Shown: positions 1-12,726 of the stretch, piece by piece
Numbering within the stretch: position 1 is the first letter of the stretch
Layout: every line of letters starts with the position of its first letter
Source: an uncultured Bacteroidota bacterium
GTDB lineage: Bacteria > Bacteroidota > Bacteroidia > AKYH767-A > OLB10
Direction: 5' to 3'
Assembly (NCBI GenBank): GCA_900696575.1
Contig: CAADHD010000023.1
Location: 1-64,000 of the forward strand
DNA length: 64,000 bases
Made by a program: the position numbers and the translations under genes
Notes under the pieces: model-generated
Databases searched by the model: none
The model's input: only the letters and a program-made list of their open reading frames with translations
What the model was told of the DNA's origin: nothing

Positions 1-896
1 CTGAAGAGCTGGAAGCCATAACAAACGACTTTATTACCCAATCGCTATCACAGCAATGGAACCTTGGAACGTATGAGTATGAAGATGTGGTATTAATGCT
101 CGAAGGAGCTTTGAACTACCGTACCTGTACACCGCAAGAGTATTATGATGAGATAGCTATAGACAGCGCTGTGTTTCAGTTAGATATTTTTAAACAAGCA
201 GATGACCATTGGTATGTGGAATCCGAACGTGTTATAGAATTTTGGAACACACTAATGCAACATGCGGCAAGCGCACCGGAGCGGCTACAGTTAACAAATG
301 GCTTCAACATTGTAGCCGACCTTGAAGTAGCCGGTGTTGATTATGAAACGGAGAAAATAAACGTGAGTGTGGTTATTTGGGCGGGGAATGGAAGTGAAGA
401 AACAATTTGTGATTTTACAAGCAATGATTATTGGTTAGCGTGTGCCCCTGTAGGTGGATGCTATACAAACTCAAATAATCTTACATCAGATTCAAGAATT
501 GAGATTCAGAAAAGATTGAATAATAGAACTTGCAATCAGTTTCTATTGACTGGTTGTGATTATTATATGTATATCAGCTTGCAAGGATTTTCGGCCTTGA
601 ATTTTCCATCAATATCTTGTCAGAATTATTGTTTTGCTATTTTAAATTATGGTGGTACCATGTTTATTGGATATGGTATGAATGATTGTATTTCACCTCA
701 AGAGTTAGAGTGCAGTGTAACGGAAACAGCAAAAATGGCTAGTTGTAATGCACCAAATGTTCCTGGTTCGTTTTCTAATAAGGATGTAATTTCACATAAC
801 ATTCAATACGCACAAGATAATAATCAGCCACCATATCTTTGGTATCATTTTGTAACTGTTAGCAATGGAAAGTGTAATACATACACACCTGATTAA
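1..896 (+). CDS. Hypothetical protein, N-terminus cut by window edge
   Basis: The reading frame (codons starting at base 3) is open to the left edge, so this is the 3' part of a longer gene and the GTG at 87 is not a real start. I do not recognise the family. The visible product is acidic, rich in aromatic residues and asparagine, and has about a dozen cysteines in its C-terminal two thirds, as in exported proteins. No T9SS sorting domain is seen at its C-terminus. The first ~390 bases look clearly higher in GC than the rest of the gene. Its end overlaps the presumed start of the next, broken gene by 32 bases. Function unknown. Confidence 0.6.
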   Translation, partial: EELEAITNDFITQSLSQQWNLGTYEYEDVVLMLEGALNYRTCTPQEYYDEIAIDSAVFQLDIFKQADDHWYVESERVIEFWNTLMQHAASAPERLQLTNGFNIVADLEVAGVDYETEKINVSVVIWAGNGSEETICDFTSNDYWLACAPVGGCYTNSNNLTSDSRIEIQKRLNNRTCNQFLLTGCDYYMYISLQGFSALNFPSISCQNYCFAILNYGGTMFIGYGMNDCISPQELECSVTETAKMASCNAPNVPGSFSNKDVISHNIQYAQDNNQPPYLWYHFVTVSNGKCNTYTPD

Positions 897-2369
897 AATA
901 TCTATTTTTCTAGTGATGATTCAAATGACTGAGCATTTAAATGCTCAGTCATTTGAATTCATTTATTCAACTTCACAAGATGAATCTATTTATGAAGTAA
1001 TTCAGGATGAAAAGGATAGTTACTATTTAATTCTCAATCAAGGAACATTTCCAAGTTTATATAACCCATTATTGATAAAAATTGATTCACTTGGAAATTT
1101 TGTTAAATCACAGAGTGTAAATTCATTGTTGAATAATGTATTTGTAGGAAAGAATTGTTTAAAGTGGAATGACAGTTTATTTGTAACAACTGGAATTGCT
1201 ACAGATTCTATAACCGGACTTCAGGGATTATATTTCTTGTCATTTGATTCGTCATTCAATTATTTAAATGAAAAACTGATAAGTTTTTCAACACAAAATC
1301 TATATGCTACAAGAATACGATTATTATCAGATTACAGTTTACTTGTTGGTGGCAGCATGATTGACAATGCAAGCTTTGACTATCAATTTTACATGTTGAA
1401 ATTACACAACTTGGATAGTATTAAAAACATTTATATTTATGGACAACCCAACCAAAATGAAACGCTGACTGACTTTCTTATTTTTCCGGATAATTCTGGA
1501 TATTTACTATTCACCTGAGGCTTAAGTCCAGGAATCAATCAAAGCGAAATGATAAGGGTGGATACAATTGGAAATATAGATTCAATTTTTGTTCTGCCTT
1601 TTGCTTCACTTCCTGTAGCTACATCTGCAAAATGGATTTCCCATGACAGATTTCTGGTTTTATCTTCTGCATTTGATCAGTTCAGCATATCTTTTGAATG
1701 GGGAATTACATCTTTATTATACAGTAACGATGTTGAATTATTGAAAGATACTTTTTTTATATATCAAGACACATTAACAAGAGAAGTTCATCAAGGTATT
1801 GACTTCACCTATAATAACAGAATATATCTTGCAGGAACAAAAAATCATCATTTATCTTTTTTTCAAAACGAACCAGCATATTATCTTTTGATGTGTGTTG
1901 ATTCAAATCTGAATTTTAAGTGGATAAAAAGTATTGAATATAATCAAGAGTATCTTCAATTAAAAAAGTCCTCGCTACCAATGATGGCGGAGTGCTGCTT
2001 ACCGGCACTAAATACAATGCAGCCACAACCAACGGGCAGGAGCGTGATATTTATGTCATCAAACTCGATTCGCTGGGCAACTATGTAACCGGCACAGGCA
2101 GCAGCCCCGTTGCACTGGTTCATGATTTCATTGTTTATCCCAACCCTGCTGCTTCACAGCTTACGCTTCAATACACACCGCCCCAAACCACCGGCTATGC
2201 AACCATTTACAACACCTTTGGCGAAGCAGTACAGCAACTCACTTTACCGCCCGGCATCACACGCCAGCAAGTAAACATTGCTCACTTACCCGCAGGGCTT
2301 TACTTAATAAAAGTAGAGGCCGATGGGAAAAGCGGAGTAAAGCGGTTTGTGAAGCTTGCCTATCCTTAG
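865..2369 (+). pseudogene. T9SS-sorted secreted protein, broken by a nonsense codon and a frameshift
   Basis: Three open segments join into one secreted protein. It starts at ATG 865 with a signal-like segment (ISIFLVMI, then LNAQS) and continues as beta-propeller-like repeats. It meets TGA at 1516-1518 and goes on in the same frame (GLSPGINQ, VDTIGNIDS). At the run of six A at 1962-1967 it needs a -1 shift to reach the frame reading VLATNDGGVLLTG, RDIYVIKLDSLGNY and a type A sorting domain (VYPNPAASQLTLQY, LPAGLYLIKVE, VKRFVKLAYP). The last part is the normal end of Bacteroidota T9SS cargo. One TGG to TGA change and loss of one A would explain both lesions. A sequencing or assembly error, or slippage-based switching, cannot be excluded. 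Confidence 0.75.
919..958. repeat. Perfect 40-bp palindrome without spacer
   Basis: The 20 bases at 919-938 are exactly complementary, read backwards, to 939-958. The centre is TTTAAA and the match stops at 918/959. It lies 22 bases after the stop of the first gene and inside the presumed signal-peptide region of the broken T9SS gene. No T-run follows, so it does not look like an ordinary terminator. Confidence 0.9.
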
Positions 2370-3214: not shown

Positions 3215-4456
3215 ATGATTCCATTTGATCAATTTAATCTTGAAAACGGACTTCGCGTTTTTGTGAATACCGACCGTTCCACACCCATGGTCAGTTTAAA
3301 CATCATGTACAACGTAGGAGCCAAAGACGAAGATGAAAACCGTACAGGCTTTGCCCATCTGTTCGAACACCTCATGTTTGGCGGAAGCAAAAACATACCC
3401 AGCTACGACCAGCCTTTAGAAAGGGCAGGAGGGGAGAACAATGCATGGACTAACAATGACCTTACGGATTATTACTTAACGCTTCCTGCACAAAATATTG
3501 AAACCGGTTTCTGGCTCGAAAGCGACCGCATGCTTGAACTTGCTTTCAGTCCTGAGAGTCTGGAAGTGCAGCGGCAGGTAGTAATTGAAGAATTCAAGCA
3601 GCGCTACCTCAATCAGCCTTATGGAGACTTGTGGTTGCTTATGCGTCCATTGGCATACAAGATACATCCTTATAAATGGAACACCATAGGAAAGGAAATT
3701 TCTCATATTGAAAATGCCAGGCTTGAAGATGTAAAAAATTTCTTTTTCAGTTATTATGCTCCAGATAATGCCGTGATGTCAGTATCAGGAAATATCAGTA
3801 CCGGTGAAGTGAAAGCGTTAACAGAGAAGTGGTTTGCTGAAATTCCTTCGCGGAATGTTAAGAAAAAAACATTGCCTAAGGAGCCGAAGCAAACCGAAAA
3901 GAGAACCTTGACTGTTGAGCGTAATGTTCCGGCTGATGTAATCTGTAAGGTCTGGCATACCTGCGCACGCATGGATGAAAATTTTTATGCCAATGATTTA
4001 ATGACGGATGTATTAAGTAAAGGCAAGTCGGCAAGGCTTTATCAGCGCCTTGTTAAAGAAAGAAAGCTATTCTCAAGTATTGATTGCTATCTTACAGGTG
4101 ATGTGGAAGAAAACCTGATTGCTGTGAAAGGACGATTAATGAAAGATATAACTATGGAACAAGCCGAAACGGCTATTGATGAGGAAATGGAAAAACTGAA
4201 ACAGGAAAGCGTTACCGCTGACGAAATGAAAAAAGTAAAACAGATGGCCGAAGCAGCCGTTGTGTTTTCTGAGATAAGCGTAGCTGATAAGGCGTTGAAT
4301 ATCTCATACTACGCCACACTCGGAAATGCAACCTTGATTAACAAACAGGTCGAATTATACCATGCTGTTTCACCTGAGCAAATTAAACTGGAAGCACAGA
4401 AAGTTTTCAGAGAGGAAAACAGCAGTGTACTTTATTACAGGAGGGAAAAGAAATGA
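3215..4456 (+). CDS. M16 family zinc metallopeptidase (catalytic subunit)
   Basis: A pitrilysin/processing-peptidase-like protein. The inverted zinc motif HxxEH is present (residues 48-52, HLFEH) with the third ligand Glu about 74 residues on (VVIEEFKQRY). The N-terminus FNLENGLRVFVNTD is typical. The frame extends upstream to 3146, but the ATG at 3215 matches the family start, and the upstream part overlaps the miaE promoter side. No signal peptide is seen, suggesting a cytoplasmic enzyme. It overlaps the next gene by four bases (ATGA), so the two are translated as a pair. Together they make the usual two-chain bacterial M16B arrangement: one active chain and one that shapes the chamber. Substrate unknown. 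Confidence 0.9.
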   Translation: MIPFDQFNLENGLRVFVNTDRSTPMVSLNIMYNVGAKDEDENRTGFAHLFEHLMFGGSKNIPSYDQPLERAGGENNAWTNNDLTDYYLTLPAQNIETGFWLESDRMLELAFSPESLEVQRQVVIEEFKQRYLNQPYGDLWLLMRPLAYKIHPYKWNTIGKEISHIENARLEDVKNFFFSYYAPDNAVMSVSGNISTGEVKALTEKWFAEIPSRNVKKKTLPKEPKQTEKRTLTVERNVPADVICKVWHTCARMDENFYANDLMTDVLSKGKSARLYQRLVKERKLFSSIDCYLTGDVEENLIAVKGRLMKDITMEQAETAIDEEMEKLKQESVTADEMKKVKQMAEAAVVFSEISVADKALNISYYATLGNATLINKQVELYHAVSPEQIKLEAQKVFREENSSVLYYRREKK

Positions 4457-5727: not shown

Positions 5728-5838
5728 TATTATTTGATTCATCATGAAAGTTTGCTTTCTTCGCAAAGTAAAAATGAGGATTAAATTACCTCAATTGTAA
5801 GTATGATATGCGTTGATAACCTTAAAATAAATTTACAC

Positions 5839-8800
5839 ATGAAACACCTTCGGATAGCCTTATTGTTTTTTTGGAGTTTGACATGCAATAACTTATTTGC
5901 TTCTCATGGAATGGGAGGGGAGTTGACATGGACATGTCAGGGCAACGCCTATGTTTTCACCATGAAATTTTACCGCGATTGCAATGGAATTCCGGGTCCT
6001 GTTAATCCATCATTAACTACTAATGTTCCGGGTGTTCCTAATATCCCGCTTACACAAATTTCATTGACTGACATAAGTCCTACCGGCTCCAATACTTCAG
6101 GTGTTACTCCTTGCCCTGCTTGTCCGGCTTCGGGTTCAGGAGGAGGTAATGGAGCTGTCCATGAGTATGTTTATCGTTCAAATCCTGTTATTCTTCCCGG
6201 TACTCCGCCTGCTGCAGGTTGGGTATTTTCATGGGGTGAGTGTTGCAGGAGTAATTCATTAACCAATATGGTAGGTGCGGGTGGCTTAAGTATGGGAATA
6301 AGAGCGGTTATGTATCCTTATGCAGGTTTTATTGCCGGTCAATGCCGCGATAACTCTCCCTTTTTTGCTGAAAAACCTAATGTAATTATTTGTACGGGGT
6401 ATCCGTTTACATACAATCACAACGCGATAGATTATGAGCTTGACTCATTGGTTTATTCATGGGATTCTCCTGTTTCTTCTCCACCCATAACACCTCAGGC
6501 TTACTCAGCAGGATATTCAGTGAATAGCCCCCTTCCCGGTCCGATACAAAATCCTTTAAATGTACCTGCTGCGTTGAATTCACAGAATGGTGAGATTACG
6601 TTTACATCATTTACCCAAGGGTATTTCGTTACGGTTGTTAAAGTAACCGCTTATAAATGCAACACAAAAGCTGCAGAAATTTTCAGAGAAATTAATGTGG
6701 TATTGATAGCCGGATGTGTACTTCCCTGTTCAAGCCCGGTTGTTCAGAATCTACCACCACAAGTAACAATTATCAATCGAAAAACCGGACTACCCATCAG
6801 TCAAAACAAGGATACTGTATGTGTAGGGGATACGTTAAAGTTAAGAATTATTGCTTCTGATCCCGATTGCCATCCTACCATGGGAGTGCAAAGTGTTACG
6901 TTCACTATAACAGGAAGTGAATTGAGTTCTCCGGCCAATAATCCAAACGGAACATGCCTAATTCAGCCATGTGCATACACCAGTGCCAACTTACCGCTTA
7001 CAGCACTGTTTGGAACACAAATGGATTTTGACTGGCCGGTTAAATGTGAGCATCTCGGTTTTGATACCTTATGTACCCGGATAAGCAGCACTTTTAATTT
7101 TGTTATTAAGGTAAAAGACAATTATTGTCCGGCACCGGGCATAAATACCAATACGCTTTCCATCACCGTTAAACGTTGCCGCGAAATCGGTCCTCCGGAA
7201 TTAAGATGCGCTTCGGTTGAAACGCCAAGCGGTGATGTCCGCTTGAACTGGAAACCCGAATCACCCAGAGACACATTTGGACTATTTCATAAGTATGAAA
7301 TTGTTGGCAGTTTAAACCGGCTTGGACCTTATGTAGTTGTTGACAGTGTTTACAATCCGGTCAATAATTATCTTACCAATCAGATTTTAATTCCTGCCTG
7401 GAAATTGGTGAGCAATCTTGGGTATCATGGACAGGATACCTCCCTCTATTTCAAAATGATTACCTATTCAGGTTGCAGATGGGATAGTATATCTGATAGT
7501 TCGAACATTATCCGAACAATGAAGCTTCATGCCGATACCGGTCAGATGAATGCAGCTATTTTAACATGGAACTCTGTTCATGTGCCATTGTTACCTACCA
7601 GCAATCCGTGGTATTATATCTACCGGGAATATCCTGCCGGAACATGGACCATGATAGATTCGCTGCTGCATCCTCCGGGAATCTTTTATGATACCATACT
7701 TACCTATGTAGATACTTTCCCGCGGCAATTGTGTGATGATATTGTTGTTTACCGGATAAGAACATCAGACAGTTTGTATTGTGACAGCTGGTCATCGTTT
7801 GATACTATAGATGTATCTAACAATACACCCTTAGCCGCCATTACCCCGCCTGCGCCTGCAATCTGTACTGGTGGCAATGTAAATCTTACGGCTTCGGCCG
7901 GAGGGTCGGTATATTTATGGTCAACCGGAGCAAATACTCAAACAATCAATGTATCATCAGCCGGGACTTATACAGTTACCATTACTTATAATCCGGGAGG
8001 TTGTACAGCTACGGCAACAGCCACAGTACAACAGGTAACGCCCTGTACACCTGCGTGGTCGGCATCGCCAACCAGTTATTGTGCAGGCGGATCATCTACA
8101 TTGACAATAAATTGTGCCGGAGGAACGGGGCCTCCTCCTGCAAGTTATACCTACTCATATACCAATGTAACTACGGGACAGGTGTTCGGTCCTTTCACTG
8201 TTGCCACTTTGCCAATCAATATCCCGGTAAGTCCTGCAGCTACCTCTACCTATCAATTAACAAGTTTTATAGCCAATTATCCCACATTTAGTTTAACCTG
8301 TCCGGGTTCTCCACTACCTGCCAATGTTACAATAACAGTGAACCCAATACCGACAGCCGCAATTTCAGTTTCGGGAGCATCTTCTATTTGCGAAGGACAA
8401 TCGGCCAATATACAGTTCAACTTTACAGGCTCCGGTCCCTGGACATATTCCTACAATACCCCTTCAGGTGTATTAGGTCCGTTAGTTACAGCTACTTCTC
8501 CGGTAACTGTTTCTGTAAGTCCGACTGCTACTTTTAGTTATACGTTAGTGAGTACCAGCAATGCTTTATGTAACGGAACGGTATCCGGCAGTGCATTGAT
8601 TACGGTTAATACACTTCCTCAGGCTACCATTTCAGGCACAACTGCCATTTGTGAAAATCAGAATGCAACTATCACTGTAAATTTTGCTAATGCTCCGGGA
8701 CCCTATTCAATTACTTATAATCCGGGCAATGTGGTAGTAAATAATGTGAATAATCCATACACGTTTAATGTTTCGCCTTCTTCCACTACTAATTACACCT

Positions 8801-11800
8801 TAGTAGCTGTAAGCAATGCGAATTGTACAGGATCAGTTTCAGGCAATGCAAACATTACTGTAAATCAGTTGCCCACAGCAAACATTGCAGGCAATCCAAC
8901 TATTTGTAATGGACAGCAAACAAACCTTACTGTTAATTTCGGTGGAGGACCGGGGCCTTACAACTTTGTTTACAATCCGGGTAATGTTGCAGTTAATGGA
9001 GCAACCAATCCGGCTGTCATCACCGTAAATCCAACTTCAACAACAAACTATAGTCTTGTTTCGGTAAGCAATGCCAATTGTACAGGAACGGTTTCAGGTG
9101 CTGCTACAGTAACCGTAAATCCGCTTCCTACTGCTCAAATAACAGGTAATCAAACCATCTGTAACGGCCAGCCGGCCAATCTGACCATAAGTTTTACCGG
9201 TACCGGTCCATGGACTTACAGTTATCTGGCAAATGGTAATCCGGTAGGTCCGTTTGTTGCAAACTCTTCTCCGGCAACTATCACCGTTACGCCAACAGCC
9301 AGCACAACTTATACATTACCCCTCACTGTAACTGATGCCAACTGTACAGGAACCAGTACATCGGGCTCGGCTTTGGTTACTGTTACGCCATTGCCATCGG
9401 CTCAGATAAGCGGAACTACAGCTATTTGTAACGGCCAGCAAACGGCACTTACTTTTGATTTTACCGGGCAGGCGCCTTTTGTTTACTCATATTCTGATGG
9501 CACGAACACCTTCGGGCCATTTAATACCAACCTGAATCAGGTAACCATAAATGTTGCGCCAACATCCACCACAACCTATTCGCTGGTAAATAACTTAACC
9601 GGTAATGGTTGTAGCGGCAGCGTTTCAGGTTCTGCTACTGTAACGGTGCATCAGTTGCCTGATGCTGCCCTTACAGGAACAGCAACCATTTGTGATGGCG
9701 ATAATGCAACCCTTACTGTAACATTCTCCAATGCTCCCGGCCCATACTCATTCACTTACAATCCGGGTAATGTTACTGTGAATAATGCCGGCAATCCGGC
9801 AACCATTACTGTGAATCCGGGCGCTAATACCACTTACACTCTGGTAACTGTAAGTAATGCGAATTGCCCAGGCACTATTTCATCACCCTCAGCCACTGTT
9901 ACCGTAACTCCATTGCCTGCAGCAACTCTCTCGGGAACAACAACCATCTGCAACGGTAATTCAGCCAATCTTACAGTCAATCTCACCGGCCAGCCTCCTT
10001 ACAGCTTCAGTTATACAGACGGAACTAACATTTTTGGACCCATTAACACCAGCAACAGCAGTTATACCATCAGTGTAAACCCCAGCACAAATACCAATTA
10101 TACGCTGCTTCCTGTAGTTACCGGTAATAATTGCAATGGTACTACCAGCGGCAGCGCTTCTATAACGGTTAATCAATTGCCAAGTGCCGTCATGTCAGGT
10201 ACACCGGAAATCTGCAACGGAGATCAGACAACTATTGAAGTGAACTTTACGGGCGTGGCGCCTTTTACTTACCGCTATTCTGATGGCACTAACACCTACG
10301 GCCCGTTTATAGCTGCATCCAGTCCGGCTTCTATCAATGTATCTCCTGCTGTAACTACCAATTATACCTTGATTTCGGTGGATGATGCCAATTGTACAGG
10401 TACGGTTAGCGGAAGTGCATTAGTAACGGTTCATCAATTGCCGGCAGCTCAGATTACCGGCAGCACTACAATATGTGACGGAGACCAAACTAATCTTGAT
10501 TTTACTTTTACCGGAGTGGCTCCTTTCACATACTCTTATTCTGATGGCGCCAATACTTATGGTCCGTTTATAGCCAACAGTAATAATATCTCAATTCAGG
10601 TTTCACCTAATGCTACTACTACCTACACACTGATTACCATTGAAGATGCTCATTGTACCGGAACCGTTACAGGAAATGCAACCATTACCGTAACTCCATT
10701 ACCAACAGCTGCTCTTTCGGGATCGCCTGTTATCTGCAACGGCCAAAGTGCCAGCCTCACTGTAAATTTTACGGGTGTCGCTCCTTTTGAATACAGCTAT
10801 ACTGACGGAGCAAACGTGTATGGACCATTTACCACTTCGTCCAATCCTGTAAATATTTCGGTTTCACCAACTGTAACCACCACTTATACCTTGACTTCAT
10901 CTGTAATAGGTGCCGGCTGTAACGGCACTACCTCAGGAAATGCCACGGTTACCGTTAATCAGCTGCCTGATGCCGTTGTGTCGGGCAACAGCACAATCTG
11001 CAATGGTGATCCGACTTCCTTTAATATTACCTTTAACGGTGTTCCTCCGTTTACTTATTCTTATTCGGATGGATCAGCTACTTACGGCCCGTTTGTTTCC
11101 GCTTCTTCAACAGTAAATATCCCTGTCAGCCCTTCAAATACCACTACTTATTCTGTTGTTTACATTGCTGATGATAATTGTACAGGCACGGCTTCAGGAA
11201 ATGCAACAGTAACGGTAAATCAGCTTCCACAGGCGCAACTGAGCGGAACAACTTCAATTTGTGACGGTAACCCGACATCATTAATTGTCAATTTCACCGG
11301 TACAGCCCCGTTTACTTATTCTTACAGTGATGGCTCTTCCACGTTCGGCCCCTTTACTACAACTAATAATCCCGAAACAATTTTAATACAGCCTGGTGCA
11401 ACTACATCCTATTCATTATTATCAGTTACCGATGCCAACTGCACCGGCTCTGTGTCAGGAAATGTTACTGTAACAGTTAACGAATTGCCTACTGCGGTTA
11501 TCAGTTTAAATAGTGTGATTTGTGTTGGCCAGCAAACAAATTTTCAGGTGGCATTTACCGGAACCGCACCTTTCACTTTCTATTACACTAATGGTCAGCA
11601 AACCTTTGGTCCTGTTACCACTTCCGGCAATCCTGCATTGATTCAGGTTTCACCCGGTGTTACTCAAACATATTCGCTGGTTAGTGTAACCGATGCTAAT
11701 TGCCCGGGAAGTGTTTCAGGTTCGGCCAACGTAATTGTTCATCCGCTGCCTACACCGGTTATCACCGGAATAAATACAATTTGCGATGGTGATGAAACTA

Positions 11801-12726
11801 CCTTTGATGCCGGTACTGGTTATACTGCTTATTTATGGAGTAACGGTCAGTCCACGCAAACCATTAACATCAATGCAGCAGGTACTTACACTGTTACCGT
11901 TACCGATAACAATGGGTGTCAGAACAGTGATGATCAGGTACTCACAGTTAATCAAACTCCTGTTGTCAGTTTCACAAACGACACGAGCCTAACCTGTTCT
12001 GATCCGGTAATCAATTTTATCAACCTGTCAACCTATCCACCAGGTTCCACTTTTAACTGGACTTTCGGAAATGCCGGTACTTCTACCTTGGCAAATCCTT
12101 CACAGCTATTTACTCAGCCCGGAACGTATCCTGTTACCTTGATAATTACCTCGCAGGCCGGTTGCCGTGACTCACTTACCCGGGATGTTGAAATAATGTT
12201 CTACCCTTTGCCGGTAGCTGAGTTTATTGCCAATCCGAAAGAAGCCGGAATTTTCAATTCGAAGATTAAGTTTACCGACCTTTCTCAATATGCTGTTTCC
12301 TGGTGGTGGGATTTCGGAGACGGACAAAATTCTGCTCTGCAGCATCCGGAACATTACTACGATGAAATGGGCAAATTCATAGTAACTCTTACCATTAAGA
12401 GTATTGCCGGTTGCAAAGCAACATTTCGAGAAACGGTTTATATCACCCCGTTTTTTGTTCCCAATGCATTTACCCCTAACAATGATGGATTGAATGAGAA
12501 CTTCTTTGAAGCTGGTTACCTTCTTGATGTCTCGAAATACAATATGAGCATCTTTAACCGATGGGGTCAAAAGGTATTTGAAAATGATTCTCATTACAAA
12601 CCATGGAATGGTTTGGATAAAAATGGTAAACCGGCCCCGGAAGGCGTTTATGTGTATGCCATTAAAGTGAAAACTATATCAGGCAAAGACTATTATTATT
12701 CAGGACATGTTACCCTGTTAAGGTAA
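5839..12726 (+). CDS. Giant surface protein with 13 Ig-like repeats and gliding-type T9SS B sorting domain
   Basis: A 2295-residue secreted protein. The start chosen gives a clean signal peptide (MKHLRIALLFFWSLTCNNLFA, cut before SHGMGG); the frame also extends to 5803. Order of parts: an N-terminal module starting SHGMGGELTW and containing FYRDCNG, common in Bacteroidota surface proteins; a fibronectin-III-like stretch (about 7195-7450); an Ig-like segment; 13 tandem modules of 85-89 residues (8344-11751); two PKD-like domains (NWTFGNAG, WWWDFGDGQ); and a type B sorting domain (PNAFTPNNDGLNENF, IFNRWGQKVFE, PEGVYVYAIKV). The last is the gliding-motility-associated C-terminal domain, so the protein is probably exported by T9SS and held at the cell surface. 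An adhesin role like SprB is inference. It has its own promoter candidate and terminator. Confidence 0.9.
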   Translation: MKHLRIALLFFWSLTCNNLFASHGMGGELTWTCQGNAYVFTMKFYRDCNGIPGPVNPSLTTNVPGVPNIPLTQISLTDISPTGSNTSGVTPCPACPASGSGGGNGAVHEYVYRSNPVILPGTPPAAGWVFSWGECCRSNSLTNMVGAGGLSMGIRAVMYPYAGFIAGQCRDNSPFFAEKPNVIICTGYPFTYNHNAIDYELDSLVYSWDSPVSSPPITPQAYSAGYSVNSPLPGPIQNPLNVPAALNSQNGEITFTSFTQGYFVTVVKVTAYKCNTKAAEIFREINVVLIAGCVLPCSSPVVQNLPPQVTIINRKTGLPISQNKDTVCVGDTLKLRIIASDPDCHPTMGVQSVTFTITGSELSSPANNPNGTCLIQPCAYTSANLPLTALFGTQMDFDWPVKCEHLGFDTLCTRISSTFNFVIKVKDNYCPAPGINTNTLSITVKRCREIGPPELRCASVETPSGDVRLNWKPESPRDTFGLFHKYEIVGSLNRLGPYVVVDSVYNPVNNYLTNQILIPAWKLVSNLGYHGQDTSLYFKMITYSGCRWDSISDSSNIIRTMKLHADTGQMNAAILTWNSVHVPLLPTSNPWYYIYREYPAGTWTMIDSLLHPPGIFYDTILTYVDTFPRQLCDDIVVYRIRTSDSLYCDSWSSFDTIDVSNNTPLAAITPPAPAICTGGNVNLTASAGGSVYLWSTGANTQTINVSSAGTYTVTITYNPGGCTATATATVQQVTPCTPAWSASPTSYCAGGSSTLTINCAGGTGPPPASYTYSYTNVTTGQVFGPFTVATLPINIPVSPAATSTYQLTSFIANYPTFSLTCPGSPLPANVTITVNPIPTAAISVSGASSICEGQSANIQFNFTGSGPWTYSYNTPSGVLGPLVTATSPVTVSVSPTATFSYTLVSTSNALCNGTVSGSALITVNTLPQATISGTTAICENQNATITVNFANAPGPYSITYNPGNVVVNNVNNPYTFNVSPSSTTNYTLVAVSNANCTGSVSGNANITVNQLPTANIAGNPTICNGQQTNLTVNFGGGPGPYNFVYNPGNVAVNGATNPAVITVNPTSTTNYSLVSVSNANCTGTVSGAATVTVNPLPTAQITGNQTICNGQPANLTISFTGTGPWTYSYLANGNPVGPFVANSSPATITVTPTASTTYTLPLTVTDANCTGTSTSGSALVTVTPLPSAQISGTTAICNGQQTALTFDFTGQAPFVYSYSDGTNTFGPFNTNLNQVTINVAPTSTTTYSLVNNLTGNGCSGSVSGSATVTVHQLPDAALTGTATICDGDNATLTVTFSNAPGPYSFTYNPGNVTVNNAGNPATITVNPGANTTYTLVTVSNANCPGTISSPSATVTVTPLPAATLSGTTTICNGNSANLTVNLTGQPPYSFSYTDGTNIFGPINTSNSSYTISVNPSTNTNYTLLPVVTGNNCNGTTSGSASITVNQLPSAVMSGTPEICNGDQTTIEVNFTGVAPFTYRYSDGTNTYGPFIAASSPASINVSPAVTTNYTLISVDDANCTGTVSGSALVTVHQLPAAQITGSTTICDGDQTNLDFTFTGVAPFTYSYSDGANTYGPFIANSNNISIQVSPNATTTYTLITIEDAHCTGTVTGNATITVTPLPTAALSGSPVICNGQSASLTVNFTGVAPFEYSYTDGANVYGPFTTSSNPVNISVSPTVTTTYTLTSSVIGAGCNGTTSGNATVTVNQLPDAVVSGNSTICNGDPTSFNITFNGVPPFTYSYSDGSATYGPFVSASSTVNIPVSPSNTTTYSVVYIADDNCTGTASGNATVTVNQLPQAQLSGTTSICDGNPTSLIVNFTGTAPFTYSYSDGSSTFGPFTTTNNPETILIQPGATTSYSLLSVTDANCTGSVSGNVTVTVNELPTAVISLNSVICVGQQTNFQVAFTGTAPFTFYYTNGQQTFGPVTTSGNPALIQVSPGVTQTYSLVSVTDANCPGSVSGSANVIVHPLPTPVITGINTICDGDETTFDAGTGYTAYLWSNGQSTQTININAAGTYTVTVTDNNGCQNSDDQVLTVNQTPVVSFTNDTSLTCSDPVINFINLSTYPPGSTFNWTFGNAGTSTLANPSQLFTQPGTYPVTLIITSQAGCRDSLTRDVEIMFYPLPVAEFIANPKEAGIFNSKIKFTDLSQYAVSWWWDFGDGQNSALQHPEHYYDEMGKFIVTLTIKSIAGCKATFRETVYITPFFVPNAFTPNNDGLNENFFEAGYLLDVSKYNMSIFNRWGQKVFENDSHYKPWNGLDKNGKPAPEGVYVYAIKVKTISGKDYYYSGHVTLLR
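8344..11751 (+). repeat. Thirteen tandem ~85-89-residue Ig-like modules
   Basis: Each unit starts with a LPxAxISGxxxICNGQ-like stretch, has a middle TYSYSDGxNTYGPF or YNPGNV segment, then TTYTLVSVSDANCTGTVSG and a closing TVTVN. Unit starts fall near 8347, 8614, 8869, 9124, 9391, 9655, 9913, 10177, 10438, 10699, 10963, 11224 and 11488. A shorter related unit starts near 11749. Each keeps one Cys near the start and one near the end, suggesting a disulfide per module. The repeats are diverged in DNA, so the expansion is not very recent. Confidence 0.9.

What the first reader, a model, noticed from the sequence alone, without database searches (positions are those of the whole stretch)
919..958. 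Perfect 40-bp palindrome inside a signal-peptide region
Twenty bases pair exactly with the next twenty with no loop. Such long spacer-free palindromes are rarely kept, since they form cruciforms and are cut by SbcCD-type nucleases. It lies at the junction of two genes of AT-rich make-up and could be a regulatory site, a recombination scar or an assembly fold-back.
Basis: seen in the sequence. Interest (0 to 1): 0.55.

Follow-up and report, generated by a model that had tools for sequence, protein, structure and literature searches.

The report
Conserved hairpin in signal-peptide codons
A perfect 40-base DNA palindrome sits at the seam between two neighbouring bacterial genes, and related gene pairs carry a hairpin at the same seam, so it is probably an RNA element that adjusts how much of each gene's message survives rather than an assembly error.

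Summary
The palindrome at 919-958 is real: 20+20 bases, no spacer, far beyond chance. It is not a fold-back. All three cover the signal-peptide codons of a type IX-secretion (T9SS) cargo gene that starts right behind another gene. A tandem pair in G177 and the third own-genome pair (C32) have strong hairpins of unrelated sequence at that junction; the C32 one folds well only in the sense RNA. Best reading: a selected RNA hairpin at an operon junction, most likely a barrier to 3'-5' RNA decay like those in E. coli that lie inside the downstream gene, with template switching keeping the arms complementary. Decay was not tested. The pattern is not general: 6 of 24 closely spaced T9SS genes sampled, in two of six genomes. 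SbcD was not detected here, so the SbcCD argument does not apply. New variant of a known kind.

The parts
919..958 (+). perfect 40-bp palindrome; as sense RNA an 18-pair hairpin with a 4-nt loop
   Evidence: (sense RNA -29.1 kcal/mol for 60 nt, z -7.6)
924..953 (+). conserved core of the hairpin shared with C17:10502-10531 and G177:C7:281362-281391 (minus strand)
   Evidence: three pairs with changes on both sides, 39 of 39 cells paired
3..896 (+). gene 1 (297 codons, 5' end cut off by the contig start), no Pfam or NCBIfam match; full-length relatives are lipoprotein-like
   Evidence: relatives
865..948 (+). signal-peptide-like N-terminal codons of gene 2, ending ...NAQ; the palindrome covers the end of the hydrophobic part and the presumed cleavage site
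   Evidence: cleavage site inferred from the sequence and paralogues, no predictor was run
865..1518 (+). gene 2, first open part; ends at an in-frame TGA
1519..1968 (+). gene 2, second part in the same frame; the frame changes near 1965-1992
1992..2369 (+). gene 2, C-terminal T9SS sorting domain (Por_Secre_tail) in another frame
   Evidence: E 2e-13; DNA 85-89% identical to the tails of C17 and C32

Best explanation
The palindrome is the DNA of an RNA stem-loop at the junction of a two-gene operon (gene 1: lipoprotein-like; gene 2: T9SS cargo). Because gene 2 starts right at the end of gene 1, the stem-loop lies inside gene 2's signal-peptide codons. The most likely action is that of a 3'-protective hairpin: after cleavage of the shared mRNA in gene 2, 3'-5' exonucleases stop at the stem, so gene 1's message outlives gene 2's and the two products are made in unequal amounts. 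The perfect 40-bp form is probably an ancestral stem of 13 or more pairs whose arms were kept or made complementary by replication template switching. Shown: the hairpin, its position, its conservation in homologous pairs with compensating changes, no T run behind it in the relatives. Inferred: co-transcription, RNA-level action, decay protection, template switching.
For: (a) The C17 paralogue, found by protein similarity, has the inverted repeat at the same codons (13-bp arms, 4-nt loop); its differences from the window's core are two compensating pairs (chance about 0.0014 if independent) and one loop base, plus a 3-nt in-frame indel in the left arm. (b) The region is the most conserved of 332 windows of gene 2 between C23 and C17 (28/33 against 509/1062 overall); third codon positions 8/9 against 12/26 just downstream, one-sided p 0.03. 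(c) A covariance model of the two found G177:C7 in another family: a perfect 30-bp palindrome at the same place in a T9SS-tail gene that overlaps a lipoprotein-like gene; core 25/30 as in C17, proteins 22% identical; profile comparisons support homology of gene 2's N-terminal part (E 4.6e-5) and gene 1 (E 1.5e-4). (d) The tandem paralogous pair in G177 has a hairpin of different sequence at the same place. (e) C32, whose gene 2 starts 152 nt after gene 1, has its hairpin before the start codon; sense RNA -26.5 (z -6.6), antisense -11.2 (z -2.8); rank 1 of 207 starts with 100-250 nt gaps. (f) A second G177 sample taken without regard to hairpins (358 kb) gave two more, both in signal peptides of T9SS-tail genes directly behind T9SS-tail genes. 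(g) In seven junctions the stem begins 22-55 nt after the upstream stop, centre 45-73 nt into the downstream ORF. (h) In E. coli 17 of 26 such protective structures lie within the downstream coding sequence, on average 107+/-56 nt in, without a U tract and with conserved wobble positions (PMC5927463, section 7 read). (i) The most perfect hairpin is in the copy whose gene 2 is interrupted while gene 1 is open, as expected if it serves gene 1 (n=1, weak).
Against: No RNA data: transcription, processing and decay are untested. Only 6 of 24 closely spaced T9SS genes have z<-4 (own 2 of 9, G177 4 of 9, four other genomes 0 of 6), so it is no rule. Two of the six (window, G177 gene 2) were found by their hairpins. 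Outside these two genomes the core was not found: 1 of 42 genomes of the order, 0 stretches in genome contigs and viral contigs for a narrower pattern. The G177 hit has E 2.7e-4 per genome with 295 genomes searched, so it rests partly on gene context; gene 1 of G177 alone gave no significant match to the own-genome profile (E 0.11). The window's hairpin is flagged terminator-like by a simple scan (5 T in the next 8 bases). PNPase and other exonucleases were not looked for.
Confidence: 0.5

Rival explanations
1. Mutational scar without function: template switching at a quasi-palindrome makes arms complementary, and such palindromes survive in coding DNA mainly where the protein is permissive, as in signal peptides.
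For: The window differs from C17 by a 3-nt indel that extends the left arm to match the right arm, plus paired changes, the known signature of quasipalindrome correction (PMC7202029 passages; PMC8794818 abstract and start of introduction; PMC8604942 abstract). T9SS closely spaced genes (4 of 22, two hairpin-found ones left out) against T9SS genes with gaps over 250 nt (1 of 40) differ only at p 0.049.
Against: Neutral correction does not predict 25/30 identity across families while the proteins share 22%, nor hairpins of unrelated sequence at the same junction in paralogues, nor a hairpin that forms well only in the sense RNA upstream of the start codon in C32.
Confidence: 0.25
2. RNA hairpin that acts on the downstream gene: it slows or gates translation at the signal peptide, or couples it to export.
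For: The 3' arm covers the presumed cleavage-site codons (ending in Q) in the seven junctions tabulated, and all seven downstream genes are T9SS-like cargo.
Against: C32 has its hairpin before the start codon; the window's gene 2 is interrupted yet has the best stem; closely spaced T9SS genes mostly lack it.
Confidence: 0.1
3. DNA-level site: a dyad bound by a dimeric protein, or a recombination site for shuffling gene modules.
For: Perfect dyad with an invariant outer part AATGACTG/CAGTCATT in three loci; the own-genome pairs share nearly identical 3' tails and divergent middles, a sign of module exchange or gene conversion.
Against: Symmetric compensating changes are not needed for a binding site; the tandem paralogue and C32 have other sequences; no crossover is visible at the palindrome, flanks diverge on both sides; C32's stem is much weaker on the antisense strand.
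Confidence: 0.08
4. Intrinsic terminator or attenuator of gene 1.
For: Distance from the stop codon fits; a consensus scan flags it; other strong hairpins of this genome look like terminators.
Against: The relatives lack a T tract: 2-4 T in the next 8 bases in six of seven junctions, 5 in the window; unlike the genome's A-run/T-run terminators.
Confidence: 0.06
5. Assembly fold-back artefact.
For: The window begins at a contig end, and the contig starts at a repeat shared with C32.
Against: Arms stop at 20 bp; both flanks are collinear with C17; homologous palindromes occur in C17 and in another genome.
Confidence: 0.01

Closest known systems
Operon-internal 3'-protective RNA structures (programmed differential mRNA decay) of E. 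coli, Dar and Sorek 2018, PMC5927463 (section 7 and passages read; author names recalled)
   Same: stable stem-loop between two genes of one strand, often inside the downstream coding sequence, no U tract, conserved in relatives with conserved wobble positions
   Different: here a perfect or near-perfect palindrome in signal-peptide codons of T9SS cargo genes; decay not measured; organisms carry T9SS
[quoted passage not shown]
   Same: stem-loops between genes of one operon set the ratio of products, secreted cellulosome proteins among them
   Different: those stem-loops lie in intergenic regions; other phylum
Template-switch-made hairpins, PMC8794818 (abstract and start of introduction), and quasipalindrome mutation in E. 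coli, PMC7202029 (passages)
   Same: explains perfect complementarity and multi-base compensating changes
   Different: a mutational mechanism, not a function
Coding palindromes of Nematomorpha mitochondria, PMC6649704 (abstract)
   Same: perfect inverted repeats inside protein-coding sequence, both arms coding
   Different: much longer, mitochondrial, not tied to operon junctions or signal peptides
REP elements, PMC3733652 (search listing with start of abstract)
   Same: 20-40 bp palindromes linked to mRNA stabilization
   Different: REPs are high-copy and extragenic; this 20-bp half has one perfect palindrome in the genome

Membership tests
Operon-internal 3'-protective RNA hairpin (differential operon decay) | two genes on one strand, closely spaced, hairpin between or just inside the second | tested here: met
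   co-transcription itself not tested
Operon-internal 3'-protective RNA hairpin (differential operon decay) | hairpin much more stable than background | tested here: met
   window, G177 gene 2, G177 gene 2' and C17 rank 1, 3, 8, 9 of 1421 starts; window, G177 gene 2 and gene 2' rank 5, 2, 8 of 1700, C17 there outside the first 16 (its z was -5.5, -4.1, -4.8)
Operon-internal 3'-protective RNA hairpin (differential operon decay) | no uridine tract behind the stem | tested here: inconclusive
   met in six of seven junctions (2-4 T in 8); window has 5 T in 8, interrupted
Operon-internal 3'-protective RNA hairpin (differential operon decay) | structure conserved in homologous operons, wobble positions conserved | tested here: met
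   five of five gene1-gene2 junctions seen have a hairpin (the starting one and G177 gene 2 were found by it, three were not); third positions 8/9 against 12/26
Operon-internal 3'-protective RNA hairpin (differential operon decay) | RNA 3' end at the stem and longer half-life of the upstream gene | not testable with these tools
   no transcript data
Intrinsic terminator | G+C-rich stem followed by a T run | tested here: not met
   stem rich in A+T, tails without a T run in the relatives; the window's own tail (5 T in 8) is flagged by a loose scan
REP element | many copies, mostly between genes | tested here: not met
   one perfect copy and one diverged paralogous copy
Quasipalindrome template-switch product | indel or cluster of changes that raises arm complementarity relative to an ancestor | tested here: inconclusive
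   3-nt indel and paired changes fit, but direction cannot be fixed: C17 could have lost what the window gained

The most novel reading that the evidence does not exclude
Signal-peptide codons of T9SS cargo genes serve as a landing place for a conserved class of junction hairpins, some with a conserved sequence (AATGACTG...CAGTCATT) across families of the class, that set the ratio of surface lipoprotein to secreted partner after transcription; the protein code at the cleavage site and the RNA code are read from the same bases and kept in step by template switching.
Probability: 0.3. Interest if true: 0.7.

Novelty: new variant of a known kind. Interest (0 to 1): 0.5.

Why it matters
It turns what looks like an odd palindrome or artefact into a testable RNA element. 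If right, the expression ratio in operons of T9SS-secreted proteins is partly written inside signal-peptide codons, a dual-coding constraint that signal-peptide and codon-usage studies would miss. It also gives a case where compensating changes in a bacterial coding hairpin can separate selection from template-switch mutation. My literature searches listed no paper that describes hairpins in signal-peptide codons of T9SS operons, judging by titles and starts of abstracts; only the held open-access PMC papers were searched.

Tried and rejected
Fold-back artefact: rejected (flank symmetry absent, homologues present). Chance: rejected. Multi-copy element: rejected. Terminator: disfavoured. SbcCD argument: the SbcD model finds nothing in this genome while it rings in 13 of 14 control genomes (8 over the cut-off); 7 of 42 genomes of the order have weak partial matches, none over the cut-off; the two weak SbcC hits are, by their sequence, SMC- and RecF-like proteins (names recalled).

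Searches that gave nothing: gene 2 profile in genome contigs, 62 pattern matches but no relative; palindrome pattern in genome contigs and viral contigs, 0; gene 1 and gene 2 of G177 in plasmids, no match. Gene 1 profile in the order: own genome plus one weak match in G040, not followed beyond its ORFs. Weak gene 2 matches in 7 other genomes showed no hairpin of the AATGACTG kind in the loci scanned.

Other hits of the hairpin model: 10 of 295 genomes at E<=0.01 including the own one; loci of 7 of the 9 others were fetched: 5 look by eye like terminators, one (L076) is unexplained, one is G177; G069 and G217 were not fetched.

Not every control favours the reading: 16 of 24 closely spaced T9SS genes have z>=-3 and 2 lie between -3 and -4. 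z-scores from 40 shuffles are noisy. The C32 window position was chosen after seeing its hairpin, so its rank is flattered. T9SS membership rests on a home-made tail profile (33 seeds, 113 ORFs) and the start codons on the first ATG; the window and C17 genes were put into that class by hand in the script.

Full report
Observation. The 40 bases at 919-958 are a perfect spacer-free palindrome. Chance is excluded. It is the only copy in the genome; the next matches to the 20-bp half have 3 mismatches, and one of them, on contig C17, proved to be the homologous site. The window is the start of contig C23 of a 2.87-Mb genome in 35 contigs.

Setting. Gene 1 (3-896, cut by the contig start) ends 22 nt before the palindrome. 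Gene 2 overlaps it: its signal-peptide-like codons hold the palindrome, and its C-terminus is a T9SS sorting domain. In the window gene 2 is interrupted: an in-frame TGA at 1516-1518 and a change of frame near 1965-1992. Whether these are real or sequencing errors cannot be told here. Intact-looking relatives exist (C32). The C17 pair is also damaged: gene 1 has in-frame stops and gene 2 is cut short in its tail.

Paralogues. The own genome holds three such pairs: C23 (window), C17 and C32. C17 has the same inverted repeat at the same codons. Against the window it shows two compensating pair changes, one loop change, and lacks 3 nt in the left arm; those 3 nt in the window extend the left arm exactly to match the right arm. 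The direction of this change is open. The gene 2 DNA of the two is 48% identical overall (509/1062), the palindrome region 85% (28/33), the highest of 332 windows.

Another family. A covariance model of the two sites found nothing else in 42 genomes of the order but a match in G177, a genome of another family of the class. There a perfect 30-bp palindrome with the same outer 8 bp lies in the signal-peptide codons of a T9SS-tail gene that overlaps the end of a lipoprotein-like gene. Three pairs of the stem differ among the three loci, all on both sides, and 39 of 39 cells pair; 15 of 500 shuffles reach this. With three sequences this is weak statistics but has no exception. Homology of the genes is supported by profile comparisons with modest E-values; gene 1 of G177 alone gave nothing.

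Hairpins of other sequence at the same junction. G177 has a tandem paralogous pair next door; its gene 2' carries a 13-pair hairpin of unrelated sequence in its signal peptide (fold -33.7 kcal/mol, z -7.3). The C32 pair, where gene 2 starts 152 nt after gene 1, has no palindrome but a long hairpin just before gene 2; it is much weaker on the other strand (-26.5 against -11.2), as expected of a stem with G-U pairs. So five of five gene1-gene2 junctions seen have a strong hairpin; the window was the starting point and G177 gene 2 was found by its hairpin, the other three were not.

Wider survey. I sampled six genomes (own 455 kb; G177 280 kb, later 638 kb; G172 400 kb; G038 160 kb; G035 200 kb; G001 313 kb). 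Of 40 perfect hairpins (arms 10 or more, loop up to 8) inside ORFs, 12 were centred 20-110 nt after the start, where 8.5% of coding bases lie (the sample includes the loci found by their hairpins). Folding of the +20..+100 region of 1421 gene starts put window, G177 gene 2, G177 gene 2' and C17 at ranks 1, 3, 8 and 9. With the second G177 sample (1700 starts) 6 of 24 T9SS-tail genes starting within 40 nt of an upstream ORF had z<-4, against 7 of 492 other closely spaced genes; leaving out the two found by hairpin, 4 of 22, one-sided p 0.0007. All came from own and G177; four other genomes gave 0 of 6. The second G177 sample, drawn without regard to hairpins, added two cases (L286, z -6.3; L289, z -3.6), both T9SS-tail genes directly behind T9SS-tail genes.

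Mechanism. Position between two genes, absence of a T tract in six of seven cases, embedding in the downstream coding sequence and conserved wobble positions match the protective structures of E. coli that shield the upstream gene from 3'-5' exonucleases; there 17 of 26 lie within the downstream gene, on average 107+/-56 nt in (PMC5927463, section 7). In seven junctions here the stem starts 22-55 nt after the upstream stop and is centred 45-73 nt into the downstream ORF. I therefore favour an RNA element that sets the ratio of the two products. Template switching (PMC8794818, PMC7202029, PMC8604942) explains how the arms stay or become perfect and is compatible with this; taken alone, as neutral process plus tolerance of signal peptides, it is the main rival, since T9SS genes with and without close neighbours differ only at p 0.049.

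What is not shown. No transcript, processing or decay data; no signal-peptide predictor; no exonuclease inventory; organism not named by any tool (Bacteroidota is inferred from T9SS, recalled).

Noticed in passing
L049:2149-2188 (G000:C17:42149-42188): A second perfect 40-bp palindrome in the genome, between convergent ORFs, with A run and T run: a bidirectional-terminator-like sequence.
   Followed up: yes
own genome and 42 genomes of the order: SbcD (TIGR00619) is undetected in the own genome and over the cut-off in none of 42 genomes of the order, although 13 of 14 control genomes ring; SbcC hits look like SMC and RecF. SbcCD may be missing from the order.
   Followed up: partly
window 1-434 and 1965-2382; C17, C32, C27, contig ends C3 and C34: A family of gene-pair cassettes shares a similar 5' leader and 3' T9SS tail with divergent AT-rich middles; contigs C23 and C32 both start inside the same repeat. 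Looks like gene conversion or module exchange.
   Followed up: partly
window 1516-1518 and 1965-1992; L026 5554-5556, 5992-5994, 7761-7763: Two of the three own-genome pairs carry in-frame stops or frame changes, as if decaying, or as if the assembly has errors there.
   Followed up: partly
L212:10329-13666 (G177:C7): Three tandem near-identical T9SS-tail genes each with an 18- or 17-bp-arm hairpin in the signal peptide; a homologue at L286:1166 has a related hairpin with different inner pairs.
   Followed up: partly
L204:3737-3771 and 4146-4180 (G177:C7): Two identical 35-bp hairpins, one inside a 201-aa ORF that resembles a REP-associated transposase (resemblance recalled, not tested).
   Followed up: no
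window 5803-12726: A 2307-aa repetitive surface-protein-like ORF.
   Followed up: no
L076:1508-1553 (G070): An 18-bp-arm hairpin without A or T runs, found by the model; not explained.
   Followed up: no
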